From positions 742,861 through 806,860 of the forward strand of contig CALSRJ010000001.1 in assembly GCA_943788725.1 (NCBI GenBank): a DNA stretch of 64,000 bases, in the 5' to 3' direction. Numbering within the stretch: the first letter of the stretch is position 1; each line of letters starts with the position of its first letter. Positions 14,927 through 23,176 of the stretch are shown here, piece by piece. Both the position numbers and the translations under genes were made by a program. This DNA comes from an uncultured Flavobacteriales bacterium (GTDB taxonomy: Bacteria; Bacteroidota; Bacteroidia; Flavobacteriales_G; Salibacteraceae). The notes beneath the pieces are model-generated. The model was not told the DNA's origin and did not search any database. It saw nothing but the letters and a program-made list of their open reading frames with translations.

Positions 14927-15472
14927 TTAATTCACTAAACGGTTTTGCTGCTCGTATTTTTCGATTTTCTCTAGGTGCATCTCGAGCAACATGAGACGCA
15001 ATCTATAGTTCTCAACCATGTGCCGCACGATCCGCTGATCGCCTTGGTGATGGTTTAATTCTTCTCTGAGAGCCTCGTAATCTTCCTCGAGCTGATGCAA
15101 CTGTCCCACGACAAGTTGACCGATCATTTCTTCCGATTCGCTTGAGGCGACGCTTCTTTTTTTAGTGCGTATTTGTTCCATGAAGTAGCTCTCCACTTCA
15201 GCCATTTCAGGCGAAATATCACTCAAACCAATCGTGGCTTGTTGAATGGGCTGATCCATTTCTCCTTCCCGATTCGGAACAGCTCGAGTAACGAACAATA
15301 TTCCAACGATCACCGCAGCGGCCCACCAGACCATCTGCATCGGGTTATTGCTCGTAGGCTCCTCGGAAAACTTGCGCAGCTTTTGTTCGAAGCGCTTTGC
15401 ATGCCCTTGGTTTGGCTCTTGGTCATCAAAAGATGACCGATCGGCGCTGATAATTTCTTGTAATGATTTCAT
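14927..15472 (-). CDS. single-pass membrane protein, putative anti-sigma factor
   Basis: This 181-residue protein has a cytoplasmic N-terminus of about 45 residues, one membrane segment ('VWWAAAVIVGILFVTRAV', about 48-65) and a periplasmic coiled-coil C-terminus ('HQLEEDYEALREELNHH'). It starts inside the last codons of the sigma gene (ATGA overlap), the typical place for the cognate anti-sigma factor in Bacteroidota. It does not show the zinc-binding H-x3-C-x2-C motif. The regulatory role is inferred from topology and position. Confidence 0.65.
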   Translation of the reverse strand: MKSLQEIISADRSSFDDQEPNQGHAKRFEQKLRKFSEEPTSNNPMQMVWWAAAVIVGILFVTRAVPNREGEMDQPIQQATIGLSDISPEMAEVESYFMEQIRTKKRSVASSESEEMIGQLVVGQLHQLEEDYEALREELNHHQGDQRIVRHMVENYRLRLMLLEMHLEKIEKYEQQNRLVN

Positions 15473-16071
15473 GGATGCTGCATTAAAAATTCTTTGACCC
15501 GCTGTTTTCCTCGGTTGAACTGTGACCGAGACGTGGCACTACTGATGCCCAGGATATCTGCAATCTCTTCATGATCGTAACCTTCAAATAGGTACAAGGT
15601 GACGATGCTTCGATATCCATCCGACAGCTGCGCAATCGCCTCTTTGATCTGTTGAACAGTATAAGGAGCGTCAAAGGATGGTTCTGCCTCCTCTGAACCA
15701 GACCATTCTTCCTTGTGACCGTCATAGGTCTTCCTCGCACGCAATGCATTGAGGCTTTTGTTCACGACAATTCGCTTCAGCCATGCGGGAAACGTCGATC
15801 TATCTAAAAGGGATGGGAGCTGTTCAAACGCAGTCAGAAAAGCCTCCTGCATGACGTCTTCCGCGTCGTGGCGATCCAATACTATTCGATGAGCAGTGTT
15901 GAACATGGCTTTGTAATACAGGTGATAGATCTGCATTTGAGCATGACGGTCTCCTTTTACACAGCGCGCCAAAACATCCCGATGGATGCTCTTGACATGA
16001 TCTGAACTCGTGCTATGATCCTGCGCGCTCACCGGCTGAAAGGTAGTATTCCGAAGTCTGTTCTCTTGCAT
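15469..16071 (-). CDS. ECF-type RNA polymerase sigma factor
   Basis: The protein has 200 residues. Sigma region 2 is 'YYKAMFNTAHRIVLDRHDAEDVMQEAFLTAFEQL', which contains the conserved D-A-E-D-V-x-Q-E-x-F core-binding helix. Region 4 is 'QLSDGYRSIVTLYLFEGYDHEEIADILGISSATSRSQFNRGKQRVKE'. It would direct polymerase to envelope or stress genes, including its own operon. I place the start at the ATG at 16071; the track begins one codon earlier at a GTG. The stop overlaps the next gene's ATG by four bases. Confidence 0.92.
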   Translation of the reverse strand: MQENRLRNTTFQPVSAQDHSTSSDHVKSIHRDVLARCVKGDRHAQMQIYHLYYKAMFNTAHRIVLDRHDAEDVMQEAFLTAFEQLPSLLDRSTFPAWLKRIVVNKSLNALRARKTYDGHKEEWSGSEEAEPSFDAPYTVQQIKEAIAQLSDGYRSIVTLYLFEGYDHEEIADILGISSATSRSQFNRGKQRVKEFLMQHP

Positions 16072-16192
16072 CACTACAACCTAAAGACAAGCCTCAAAAG
16101 GAAGTGATGCATTTGAAGTGATTTTTTTAAGGAGACATACAATGCGAGGTGATTGATTTGATTTTCACTCAAAGAATAACTAGCATTGAAAC

Positions 16193-19112: not shown

Positions 19113-19571
19113 ATGCGATTGCCCCTACTTTCCCTTTTTCTTCTTCTTGGATTGATCTTCACCGCCTGCGAGAAGATGGACAACGATAAATGCCATGAGA
19201 AGCAAACGTGTGACTACTGCGACGACAAGGACTGGGATGACAAGGATCATCAAGACGGCGACGATGACAACGACAAAGGCGACACAGACAAGGCAAGCGA
19301 TAAGGCTGAAAATGATCAAAAGAGCACGGATGAAGCCTGGGAAAAGACCATCGTAGAACCACTTGTGTTGAACGAAGATTGCGGATGCTATACAGCGGGA
19401 ATAATCAAGTATGTGAGCGGTGATGATGTCGTCCTAGTGAAATACGACAATAAGGACTGCGATGGCAAGGCCTACAAGATTTACTGCGACGACGGAGACT
19501 GCGAGAGCGAAAAAGCGAAATGCTGTGTTTTCAACCAGAAATGTAAGGAGACCACCAAGCTGAAGGACTAA
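19113..19571 (+). CDS. Asp/Cys-rich lipoprotein of unknown function
   Basis: The 152-residue product carries a lipoprotein signal with lipobox F-T-A-C (Cys19). The next 55 residues are extraordinarily acidic (runs such as DDKDWDDKDHQDGDDDNDKGD) and include Cys-x2-Cys pairs (TCDYCDD). The C-terminal part is a compact Cys-rich domain ('EDCGCYTAGIIKYV', 'NKDCDGKAYKIYCDDGDCES', 'AKCCVFNQKC') with about ten cysteines and a beta-strand pattern. The acidic linker could bind Ca2+ or other cations, and the Cys-rich end could be disulfide-stabilised; both are inferences. Signal and lipobox are clear, and a strong terminator follows, supporting a real transcribed gene. Confidence 0.7.
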   Translation: MRLPLLSLFLLLGLIFTACEKMDNDKCHEKQTCDYCDDKDWDDKDHQDGDDDNDKGDTDKASDKAENDQKSTDEAWEKTIVEPLVLNEDCGCYTAGIIKYVSGDDVVLVKYDNKDCDGKAYKIYCDDGDCESEKAKCCVFNQKCKETTKLKD

Positions 19572-19705: not shown

Positions 19706-22700
19706 ATGCATTTGACCGCTCGCCTCCTGGTACTGCTTTTTGTGGCTGTTTTGATTCAGCCCGCTCAAGCCCAAGACACTACCATCATTCAAACCTTCAC
19801 TTTCAGCGACATCACCAAACGGCGCGATGTGTTTGCATTTCCTTCAGGAGACCAAGAGTGGCGAAAGATCTTGATGTACAAGACATTGAAATGCGACAAT
19901 GCCACCACACAAGACAACTATGCATGTGGCGAGTGGGATTACCTGACCTACACTTTTGTCTACGACCATACGGGTGAACTCGATTCAACCGAGGTAGTCC
20001 ATCCGTTTTTCTTAGCGGGCGGTTTGGACATGGATACGGCTTACTACCACAATGCCCCTATGCACAACGTACACCAACGAGCACAGCAGCAACTCGTCAT
20101 CGACAGTGTGCTTTCTGAAACCTCATTCTCCATCACTTCGGGTACAGGCACGTCCAACCTTGTTTTGCCGAGCAGTGCACCAGCGTCAAGGTTTCAATTC
20201 ATATTGGATCAAGCAGATCTATCCGCAAGTGGATTGGCTGCCGATACGATAGACCGCATGGAACTGATGCTGGACCAATTGGGATCTGAGCTCAAGCATT
20301 TCACCGTGCGCCTAGCTCACACTTCATCCACGTCATTGAGCGCCTTTGCCAATCCAAGCTTTACGACGGTATATGAGCGCAATACTTTGTTTACCGCAAC
20401 GGGTTCTCAAGTCCTCAACTTCACGAGTCCTTTCGAATGGAATGGCACTTCTTCCATTCTTGTTGAACTCAGCTTCACCAATGATGCTGCCGGCACGAAC
20501 AACATCGTTGCAAGCGGAACCCAAACGGGCAATGGTGTATACGCTAACGGCGAAGATGGATACGCTTCGTTCGGTGACAACAGTCGCATCGAAGTCCCTC
20601 TTGGTGCGGTCGACTTCGGTGATGAGGTCACCATCAGCTTTTGGAGTTACGGAGACGAAAACATCCTACCGGTCAACACATCCGTATTCGAAGCTGCCAA
20701 CCACATTGGACAACGTGTACTCAACGTGCACCTTCCTTGGAGCAACGGAAGTGTATACTGGGATGCTGGTGAAGGATCGGGATACGACCGCATCAACAAA
20801 GCTTCAAATGCAGCGCAATTCAGTGGTACTTGGACGCACTGGGCTTTTACCAAGAATGCTACTACAGGTACGATGAAAATCTTCCTGAACGGAACCCAGT
20901 GGATGAGTGGAACGGACAAGAACCGCACGCTTGGAGAGATCAGAAACCTGATCATCGGTCGTGGACTTAATGGCAATCCGTACCCAGGTAAAATCGATGA
21001 GTTTCAGATGTGGACCAAGGAACTTTCCGAGCAAGAGATTCAAGATTGGATGAACAAATCAGTTGATGCTACCCACCCACAGTACGCAGACCTTCTGCTC
21101 TACTTAGACTTTAATGATGGGTACACATTGCAGAATGCAGTATCCAGTGGCGTTGAAGCCTTCTGGCACGGTGCTCCGACTGTATCAGCCCACGAAGGTC
21201 AAGCGCTGTTCTTGAATCCAACCCTTACCAATGCGGTACCGACCGTTTCCCTTTTGCAAGGGTCTTACGCATCTTCATTGGTAACGGATACGGTAAGTGA
21301 TACAGTGGCAGTTGCCCCCTACTCCATTGTAGAATATACCGTGACTGGAAACACTATCCAGGCTACTTCAGCCAACTATCCTTCACGCGTTGGACATTCA
21401 TATGTATACGATGTGAACGGCAATGCCATCGATTCTACCTTCTACAATTCTACCCAATCTCAAATCAACAATGATTTAACCTATTTCTACGAGCCTTTCG
21501 AAGTCGTTGATCGCTACGAAATTGGTCGTTTCATTACTCCGTATGGTATTGGTTTGACCTTAGGTCCACAAGGATTTACTTGGATGTATGACGTCACCGA
21601 CTACGCCCACTTACTAGTCGATTCGGTCGACATTTCTAGCGGTAACCAGCAAGAGTTGCTCGACTTGAAATTTGTCATGATTTCTGGAACTCCTCCTGCA
21701 GAGGTCGTGTCATTTGATCGACCATGGGGTCCTTCCGCCTCCGTTCGATACAGCGCGCTTGACGACGATTCCCGAATGGAGCCTGTTGAGGTAACCGTCC
21801 ATCCTGATGCTGTTCGTCAAAAGGTTGTTACGAGACTTACCGGCCACGGACACAACAGCAACACCGGAAATTACCCTCACTGCTGCGAGTGGAAAGACAA
21901 TACACACTACCTCTACGTTGATGGTTCCAAATCAGCCGAATGGCACATTTGGCAGACCCACGATTGTGCATTGAATCCTGTCTATCCTCAAGGAGGAACA
22001 TGGCCTGGAGCGCGCGAAGGTTGGTGTCCTGGTGACGTGGTGAAAGACAACATGTTTGACATCACCGAAGACGTATCAGGCAGTAGCTATGAGCTCGACT
22101 ATCGCATCACACCGGTACCTTCCAGCAACCAAGGAATGGGCAATGGAAACTACGTAGTAGCCATGCATGTGCTTCAGTACGGTGAGCCCTCTTTTGCACT
22201 TGACGCGGAAGTATACGACGTCATACGTCCAAACGATCGACAGTATTATGGACGTACAAATCCTGTTTGCTTCGCTCCGACGGTTGTCATACGAAACAAT
22301 GGAAGCACGCCGCTGACCAGTGTAGACATTACGTATCAGGTTGCTGGTGGTTATCAGCGCGTCTTTGAATGGCACGGATACCTTGAATTCCTTGAGTCCG
22401 AAGAGGTCGAATTACCCTTTGAGAACGGTAGCTTTTACTTAGGTGATGGCACGAATAAATTCACAGCAACCGTTTCGAATCCAAACGGTGAGCAAGACCA
22501 ATACGCAGACAACGACGCATTCACCTCTTCCTTTGAATTGCCAGCCTATACCGAAGGTGCCGTGGTTCTTCAGTTCAAGACCAACACCTTCAAGAACGAA
22601 AACGACATCTACGTTTACGATGCTGCAAACAACCTCGTATTCTCTAAGAAAGGCGTGAACCTCGACGCGAACACGACCTACTGGGATACCCTGGACTTGG

Positions 22701-23176
22701 ACACTGGATGTTACCGCATGGAAATCACAGACTCTAAAGATGATGGACTCTCCTATTGGGCATGGCCGAATCAGGGTACTGGATTCGTTCGACTGTGGAA
22801 CGATGCAGGTGGCGTATTCAAAGTATTCGAAAGCGAATTTGGGCACAGCATCAACTTCTCCTTTACGATAGACGCGATGTCTGTTGAAGGATATGTATAC
22901 GAGCCCACCGGTCTCGAGGAGCTCGGTACAGAAAGCGTGGTCAACGTTTACCCGAACCCGAACGACGGCAGGTTCTATTTAGAGCTGATTGGCTTCGAAG
23001 GTGTTCAGCAGCTAGAAGTGGTGGACATGAGTGGCCAAATGGTCTACTCAAAATCACTCAACGTGCATCATGCCTATTTAGATCAAGTAGACCTCAGCCT
23101 TTCTGCGGGTGTCTACTTCGTTCGCGTGCAGAATGACAAGGGCGTGGTATCTAAGAAGATCGTGGTTGGGCAATGA
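19706..23176 (+). CDS. PNGase F-like secreted protein with LamG insert and T9SS sorting domain
   Basis: A 1156-residue exported protein (signal peptide to 'AQAQD'). Residues about 30-80 ('RDVFAFPSGDQEWRKILMYKTLKC', then C-G-E-W-D) match the start of the peptide-N-glycosidase F N-domain, including the catalytic Asp. The rest of that domain resumes only near residue 605 ('YEIGRFITPYG', 'MYDVTDYAHLL'). Between them lies a large insert containing a LamG/concanavalin-like domain (about 275-450). The PNGase F C-domain follows at about 705-790 ('CCEWKDNTH', 'PQGGTWPGAREGWCPGDVV'). The C-terminus is a T9SS sorting domain ('VYPNPNDGRFYLEL', 'KKIVVGQ'). It may act on glycoprotein N-glycans, but the E118 equivalent appears lost. 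Confidence 0.85.
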   Translation: MHLTARLLVLLFVAVLIQPAQAQDTTIIQTFTFSDITKRRDVFAFPSGDQEWRKILMYKTLKCDNATTQDNYACGEWDYLTYTFVYDHTGELDSTEVVHPFFLAGGLDMDTAYYHNAPMHNVHQRAQQQLVIDSVLSETSFSITSGTGTSNLVLPSSAPASRFQFILDQADLSASGLAADTIDRMELMLDQLGSELKHFTVRLAHTSSTSLSAFANPSFTTVYERNTLFTATGSQVLNFTSPFEWNGTSSILVELSFTNDAAGTNNIVASGTQTGNGVYANGEDGYASFGDNSRIEVPLGAVDFGDEVTISFWSYGDENILPVNTSVFEAANHIGQRVLNVHLPWSNGSVYWDAGEGSGYDRINKASNAAQFSGTWTHWAFTKNATTGTMKIFLNGTQWMSGTDKNRTLGEIRNLIIGRGLNGNPYPGKIDEFQMWTKELSEQEIQDWMNKSVDATHPQYADLLLYLDFNDGYTLQNAVSSGVEAFWHGAPTVSAHEGQALFLNPTLTNAVPTVSLLQGSYASSLVTDTVSDTVAVAPYSIVEYTVTGNTIQATSANYPSRVGHSYVYDVNGNAIDSTFYNSTQSQINNDLTYFYEPFEVVDRYEIGRFITPYGIGLTLGPQGFTWMYDVTDYAHLLVDSVDISSGNQQELLDLKFVMISGTPPAEVVSFDRPWGPSASVRYSALDDDSRMEPVEVTVHPDAVRQKVVTRLTGHGHNSNTGNYPHCCEWKDNTHYLYVDGSKSAEWHIWQTHDCALNPVYPQGGTWPGAREGWCPGDVVKDNMFDITEDVSGSSYELDYRITPVPSSNQGMGNGNYVVAMHVLQYGEPSFALDAEVYDVIRPNDRQYYGRTNPVCFAPTVVIRNNGSTPLTSVDITYQVAGGYQRVFEWHGYLEFLESEEVELPFENGSFYLGDGTNKFTATVSNPNGEQDQYADNDAFTSSFELPAYTEGAVVLQFKTNTFKNENDIYVYDAANNLVFSKKGVNLDANTTYWDTLDLDTGCYRMEITDSKDDGLSYWAWPNQGTGFVRLWNDAGGVFKVFESEFGHSINFSFTIDAMSVEGYVYEPTGLEELGTESVVNVYPNPNDGRFYLELIGFEGVQQLEVVDMSGQMVYSKSLNVHHAYLDQVDLSLSAGVYFVRVQNDKGVVSKKIVVGQ

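What the first reader, a model, noticed from the sequence alone, without database searches (positions are those of the whole stretch)
19706..23176. PNGase F-like protein whose N-terminal domain is split by a LamG-containing insert, with the E118 position changed
Seen: C-G-E-W-D near residue 70, then a large insert with a LamG-like domain, and the rest of the N-domain ('YEIGRFITPYG') only at about residue 605. The C-domain (C-C-E-W, G-G-T-W, G-W-C-P-G) and a T9SS domain follow. From memory, PNGase F uses Asp60 (in EWD) with Glu118 and Glu206. The EWD and CEW residues are kept, but the YTETW position (Glu118) aligns with an uncharged residue. A nested carbohydrate-binding domain plus an altered active site points to a different glycan or peptide specificity, or to a lectin-like role.
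Basis: partly seen in the sequence, partly recalled or inferred. Interest (0 to 1): 0.6.

Follow-up and report, generated by a model that had tools for sequence, protein, structure and literature searches.

The report
PNGase F relative with nested LamG
This gene encodes a secreted relative of the sugar-removing enzyme PNGase F whose first domain is split by a large inserted carbohydrate-binding-like module; the key catalytic residues are kept in every relative examined, so it is probably a working but untested deglycosylating enzyme of a widespread, little-described subfamily.

Summary
In detail: window 19706-23176 (+) encodes a 1156-aa T9SS-exported protein whose PNGase F core is split (residues ~24-94 and ~601-826) by a ~505-residue insert carrying a Laminin_G_3 domain. 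It is not a one-off. About 70 full-length relatives from Bacteroidota, Ignavibacteria and Kapabacteria share the layout, and insert-free relatives align to both halves as one contiguous domain that folds as PNGase F. The E118 position is indeed uncharged (Gly646), but the inference from it fails: the equivalent residue is Gly in PNGF-II and Ala in zebrafish Ngly2, both reported active PNGases, while the essential pair Asp60/Glu206 (Asp78/Glu728) and the sugar-contact His are 70/70 invariant here. That argues for an active amidase, not a lectin. Distinctive features are a shortened GNxQE loop replacing E118/W120, with invariant Glu650, and a cysteine switch (CAEFC to CCEWK) suggesting a vicinal disulfide beside the catalytic Glu. 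Activity and specificity were not tested, and the position of LamG relative to the active site could not be measured. Verdict: new variant of a known kind.

The parts
19706..23176 (+). whole gene: 1156-aa LamG-inserted PNGase F-superfamily protein
   Evidence: ORF; Pfam; PDB homology
19706..19774 (+). signal peptide-like N-terminus (residues 1-23)
   Evidence: sequence; helix 2-21 in the model
19775..19987 (+). first half of the PNGase F N-domain (residues 24-94; strands 25-31, 40-44, 52-62, 80-93)
   Evidence: profile alignment to PNGase F 6-71; insert-free relatives; model
19937..19939 (+). Asp78 = PNGase F Asp60, in CGEWDY
   Evidence: invariant 70/70; alignment
19988..20131 (+). outer arm of the insert, first part (residues 95-142)
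   Evidence: aligns in part with the ~105-aa loop of the 740-aa relatives; 23-residue strand 120-142 in the model
20132..20557 (+). beta-rich module inside the insert (residues 143-284), no Pfam match
   Evidence: model pLDDT mostly above 90; present in all A1 members
20573..21043 (+). LamG / pentraxin-like domain (residues 290-446)
   Evidence: Laminin_G_3 E 2.5e-16; matched in 18 of 30 A2 members, the number of long ones; pentraxin folds by Foldseek
21245..21505 (+). outer arm of the insert, return part (residues 514-600)
   Evidence: aligns with the ~105-aa loop of the 740-aa relatives; strand 514-535 in the model
21506..21715 (+). second half of the PNGase F N-domain (residues 601-670)
   Evidence: phmmer and profile to PNGase F 72 onwards
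21641..21655 (+). shortened tip loop GNQQE (646-650) in place of PNGase F T-E118-T-W120; Glu650 invariant
21749..22183 (+). PNGase F C-domain (residues 682-826)
   Evidence: N-glycanase_C E 4e-12; Foldseek to 1png, E 1.5e-11
21845..21847 (+). His714 (position of PNGase F Trp191; His in most PNGases)
   Evidence: invariant 70/70; PMC12381499
21881..21889 (+). Cys726-Cys727-Glu728; Glu728 = PNGase F Glu206; putative vicinal disulfide
   Evidence: Glu728 70/70; Cys727 and Cys730 mutually exclusive
22184..22915 (+). C-terminal beta modules (residues 827-1070) with invariant Cys855 and Cys1002
   Evidence: A1; model
22946..23167 (+). T9SS type A sorting domain (residues 1081-1154)
   Evidence: Por_Secre_tail E 2.9e-16, TIGR04183 E 2.7e-15; GldM in the genome

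Best explanation
It is a T9SS-exported peptide:N-glycosidase (PNGase F superfamily, double jelly-roll amidase) expected to cut the glycan-Asn amide of glycoproteins or glycopeptides with Asp78 and Glu728 as the essential pair and His714, Trp77, Tyr79, Arg770 and Trp773 lining the chitobiose site. A ~505-residue appendage (beta arm + beta module + LamG) is inserted in the hairpin at the far end of the strand that begins just after Asp78; it leaves the two-halved jelly-roll intact and probably serves to dock the enzyme on glycan or glycoprotein surfaces. Shown: homology, domain layout, invariance of catalytic positions, the insertion site, and the same strand set in the model. Inferred: hydrolytic activity, the substrate, the docking role of LamG, and the vicinal disulfide.
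For: PNGase F homology by sequence and fold. Catalytic positions invariant in 70 members, most of them 31-59% identical to this protein. Insert-free relatives align as 8-95 + 574-1154 without a break, and one of them models as full PNGase F, TM 0.77 over the target. Core strands and one helix match between the split and unsplit models. T9SS tail and GldM present. One GH92 alpha-mannosidase gene elsewhere in the genome. Characterised homologues lacking E118 are active.
Against: No enzymatic data. The aromatic at the tip loop (PNGase F Trp120; Ngly2 Trp480, whose loss nearly abolishes activity, PMC12753239) is absent here (Gln648). No GH18 or GH20 genes found and no conserved N-glycan gene neighbourhood.
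Confidence: 0.72

Rival explanations
1. An active PNGase F-fold amidase with a shifted substrate range (for example algal, fungal or bacterial glycans, or glycopeptides only), caused by the shortened GNxQE loop, the CCEWK catalytic loop and the appendage. This is a narrower version of the main explanation, not exclusive of it.
For: The tip loop is shortened with invariant Glu650 and no tip aromatic in most members; the cysteine pattern around Glu728 is rewired; PNGase specificity is known to depend on these loops (PMC12381499).
Against: Chitobiose-contact positions (aromatic-Asp-aromatic, His, Glu) match ordinary PNGases; no substrate information.
Confidence: 0.35
2. A catalytically dead, lectin-like adhesin that uses the PNGase fold and LamG for binding.
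For: LamG domain present; E118 and Trp120 equivalents absent.
Against: Asp78, Glu728, His714, Arg770 and Trp773 are strictly invariant in 70 proteins, and the catalytic stretches are more conserved than the LamG insert; E118 is not kept in active homologues.
Confidence: 0.1
3. The insert is an assembly or frameshift artefact joining two genes.
For: Only the unusual architecture.
Against: One open frame with the same layout in about 70 independent assemblies.
Confidence: 0.01

Closest known systems
PNGase F (Elizabethkingia meningoseptica; PDB 1PGS/1PNF/3PMS)
   Same: double jelly-roll core, Asp60/Glu206, equivalents of Cys51/Cys56 and Cys231/Cys252, R248 and W251
   Different: no LamG insert, E118/W120 tip loop, CAEWC instead of CCEWK, W191 instead of His714, no T9SS tail in the 314-aa PDB chain
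PNGF-II / P. massiliensis PNGase (PDB 4R4Z, 7ZGN)
   Same: catalytic Asp and Glu, His before the Glu loop, Gly at the E118 position
   Different: accessory module lies at the N-terminus, not inside the N-domain; no LamG; no cysteines in the Glu loop
Zebrafish Ngly2 (PDB 9LWG)
   Same: Asp421/Glu555 pair, no Glu at the E118 position (Ala)
   Different: N-terminal Tx-like and PA domains, no LamG insert; keeps tip Trp480
Uncharacterised 640-760-aa T9SS PNGase F-like proteins of Bacteroidota (e.g. L030, L018)
   Same: same core, same C-terminal modules and T9SS tail; L030 shares the SAGNWQEL loop
   Different: about 2-105 aa where this protein has ~505 aa; no LamG; CAEFC cysteine pattern
PNGase L and PNGaseDo (PMC12381499)
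   Same: T9SS-secreted PNGase F-superfamily members from Bacteroidota
   Different: described accessory modules are terminal; no module nested in the catalytic N-domain is described in the passages read

Membership tests
PNGase F superfamily (PF09112/PF09113) | N-glycanase_C domain | tested here: met
   E 4e-12, 46.6 bits against cut-off 25
PNGase F superfamily (PF09112/PF09113) | N-glycanase_N domain by Pfam profile | tested here: inconclusive
   not matched in this protein; matched in 3/30 relatives; collinear weak profile match 22-86 to PNGase F 6-71
PNGase F superfamily (PF09112/PF09113) | catalytic Asp60 and Glu206 | tested here: met
   Asp78 and Glu728, 70/70
   Gly646; Gly in PNGF-II and Ala in Ngly2, both active, so not a defining feature
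PNGase F superfamily (PF09112/PF09113) | two packed jelly-roll domains, the N-domain assembled across the insert | tested here: inconclusive
   insert-free relative models as full PNGase F, TM 0.77; the same strands appear in both models; packing in the split protein not measured
PNGase F superfamily (PF09112/PF09113) | peptide:N-glycosidase activity | not testable with these tools
   needs an assay
T9SS cargo (type A CTD) | C-terminal sorting domain plus a T9SS in the genome | tested here: met
   TIGR04183 56.1 bits against 23; GldM 352 bits
LamG / concanavalin A-like | Laminin_G_3 profile match and fold | tested here: met
   60.6 bits against 27.6; pentraxin folds
LamG / concanavalin A-like | carbohydrate binding | not testable with these tools
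   needs a binding assay

The most novel reading that the evidence does not exclude
A secreted PNGase subfamily in which the E118/W120 tip loop is replaced by a conserved GNxQE loop (Glu650 standing in), and the usual Cys204-Cys208 disulfide is swapped for a vicinal Cys-Cys pair directly before the catalytic Glu, giving a re-shaped or redox-sensitive active site for unusual glycans, with a LamG module on a beta arm steering substrates.
Probability: 0.25. Interest if true: 0.55.

Novelty: new variant of a known kind. Interest (0 to 1): 0.36.

Why it matters
PNGases are core tools for releasing N-glycans, and none of the characterised members described in the sources read carries a module nested inside the catalytic N-domain. 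This large subfamily, with relatives carrying graded insert sizes (about 2, 26, 105 and 505 residues), would show how a catalytic fold tolerates a big nested domain. It also gives candidate enzymes with a different active-site rim, and shows that E118 should not be used to call PNGase F relatives inactive.

Tried and rejected
Pfam N-glycanase_N in the own genome: no hit, and the tool warned that the profile rang nowhere, so not used as evidence of absence. Genomic-context argument: no conserved neighbours beyond close relatives. Foldseek on the full model aligned only about 246 columns with PNGase F (TM 0.58 over the target), apparently because of the long insert, so an insert-free relative was modelled instead. 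Metal-site reading of H714/H716/H725/C726/C727 considered: H716 and H725 largely follow the CCEWK clade signature; not tested further. Literature searches for this architecture gave nothing specific; subscription papers on PNGF-II and PNGase F mutants are not held, so statements on PNGF-II activity rest on PMC12381499.

Full report
The gene. Window 19706-23176 (+) is a single open frame of 1156 aa with a signal-peptide-like start. Pfam finds Laminin_G_3 (290-446), N-glycanase_C (682-816) and a T9SS sorting domain (1081-1154); NCBIfam gives TIGR04183 at 1081-1154. phmmer against the PDB finds PNGase F (1PGS, 1PNF, 3PMS) with query 602-824 on chain 74-304, E about 3e-14, 'YEIGRFITPY' being identical. 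A profile of 70 relatives gives E about 2e-27 and a second, weak, collinear piece: query 22-86 on PNGase F 6-71, with 603-822 on 72-296. So the insertion point corresponds to PNGase F residues 71/72, a strand-to-strand turn, not the catalytic residues themselves.

The split is real and shared by a family. A genome-contig scan returned 80 loci, most matching over the full length, from Bacteroidota (Flavobacteriales, Bacteroidales, Saprospiraceae and others), Ignavibacteria and Kapabacteria. In 395 genomes of the same class, 203 carry an N-glycanase_C match, in open frames of roughly 420-1225 aa. Relatives of about 640-760 aa align to this protein as two blocks, e.g. L030: 8-95 on 15-97 and 574-1154 on 100-659; L018: 44-117 on 50-117 and 529-1153 on 134-740. 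They therefore lack the LamG insert but are otherwise collinear, with the same C-terminal modules and T9SS tail. Insert lengths in a core tree are about 2, 26, 105 and ~505 residues; the short-loop L030, L025 and L027 lie inside a clade with long-insert members, which suggests loss or repeated gain, though branch support was not assessed. The ~105-aa loop corresponds to residues about 95-117 plus 529-600, so the LamG part seems nested at the tip of an older arm (inference). Laminin_G_3 is matched by 18 of the 30 members of alignment A2, which holds 18 long and 12 short proteins (that these are the same 18 is my reading of the count).

Do the halves assemble? AlphaFold2 of the full protein with 70 sequences gives mean pLDDT 89, pTM 0.62, so domains are confident but their arrangement less so. 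Foldseek finds PNGase F first (E 1.5e-11, TM 0.58 over the target, 246 columns), consistent with alignment of the part after the insert only, and pentraxins for the LamG domain. The insert-free relative L030, modelled with 30 sequences (pLDDT 84, pTM 0.76), matches PNGase F over 341 columns with TM 0.77 over the target. Its core elements (32-38, 45-50, 57-68, 82-94, then 122-133, 146-151, helix 153-158, 161-166, 172-182) have one-to-one counterparts in the split protein (25-31, 40-44, 52-62, 80-93, then 598-610, 624-629, helix 631-636, 640-645, 651-660). This supports assembly of the halves but is not a direct measurement, since no coordinates were available.

Active site. Asp60 is Asp78, Glu206 is Glu728; both are 70/70 in A1, as are Cys74, Glu76, Trp77, His714, His734, Arg770 and Trp773. 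Tyr79 is 69/70. The PNGase L study lists an aromatic-Asp-(positive/aromatic) motif and a His-plus-Glu pair as shared features of PNGases, PNGase F being the exception with Trp for His (PMC12381499); this protein has W77-D78-Y79 and H714/E728. At the E118 position this protein has Gly646. However, PNGF-II-type sequences read FIGNYD there, zebrafish Ngly2 reads KTAPW and the B. fragilis enzyme reads IDTW. Ngly2 loses all activity on mutation of D421 or E555, the D60/E206 equivalents (PMC12753239); PNGF-II, the P. massiliensis and the B. fragilis enzymes are described as active (PMC12381499). So lack of Glu at 118 does not mean an altered or dead enzyme.

What does differ. The tip loop is about five residues shorter, GN(Q/N/T/L)QE, with Glu650 70/70 and Gln649 68/70; the stacking aromatic (W120 in PNGase F, W480 in Ngly2, where W480A leaves feeble activity, PMC12753239) is absent in most members. 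L030, L025 and L027 and a few LamG-bearing members keep Trp (GNWQE). Glu650 could take the place of E118, but this is a guess. In the loop before the catalytic Glu, PNGase F has C204-A-E206-W-C208. Nine A1 members keep CAEFC; 55 have C726-C727-E728-W with no cysteine at 730; six have no cysteine. Cys727 and Cys730 never occur together, which suggests that Cys726 changes partner to form a vicinal disulfide. HCCEWKDN as a DNA pattern occurs in 20 of 395 genomes, with no match for the reversed control.

Context. The gene looks like an orphan: neighbours include an AraC-type regulator, an unassigned Cys/Asp-rich small protein, a cNMP-binding protein and a T9SS protein, and no shared neighbours recur beyond close relatives. 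The genome has GldM and one GH92 but no GH18 or GH20 match. It holds one N-glycanase_C match.

Conclusion. Most likely an exported, active PNGase F-superfamily amidase with a nested LamG module; a lectin-only role is unlikely. The architecture and the two loop changes make it a new variant of a known kind. Specificity, LamG ligand and the vicinal disulfide are open and easily tested.

Noticed in passing
window 21881-21889; alignment A1 columns of residues 726-730: Cysteine switch beside the catalytic Glu: CAEFC (9/70), CCEWK-type (55/70) or no Cys (6/70), with Cys727 and Cys730 never together; suggests a vicinal disulfide.
   Followed up: partly
window 22268-22270 and 22709-22711 (Cys855, Cys1002): Two further invariant cysteines (70/70) in the C-terminal beta modules, a possible disulfide joining them.
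   Followed up: no
window 19113-19571 (+): Small protein just upstream with a lipoprotein-like N-terminus, many cysteines and an Asp-rich stretch; no Pfam match.
   Followed up: no
window 15469-16074 (-) and 14927-15472 (-): ECF sigma factor overlapping a downstream gene for a protein with one apparent membrane segment, possibly its anti-sigma factor.
   Followed up: no
L030, L025, L027 against L093, L088: Short-loop and long-insert members fall in one clade sharing GNWQE, suggesting loss or repeated gain of the insert.
   Followed up: partly
L106 (5953-7908), L097 (5911-8865 and 8772-9419): Two relatives with truncated or broken frames, likely assembly errors or pseudogenes in MAGs.
   Followed up: no
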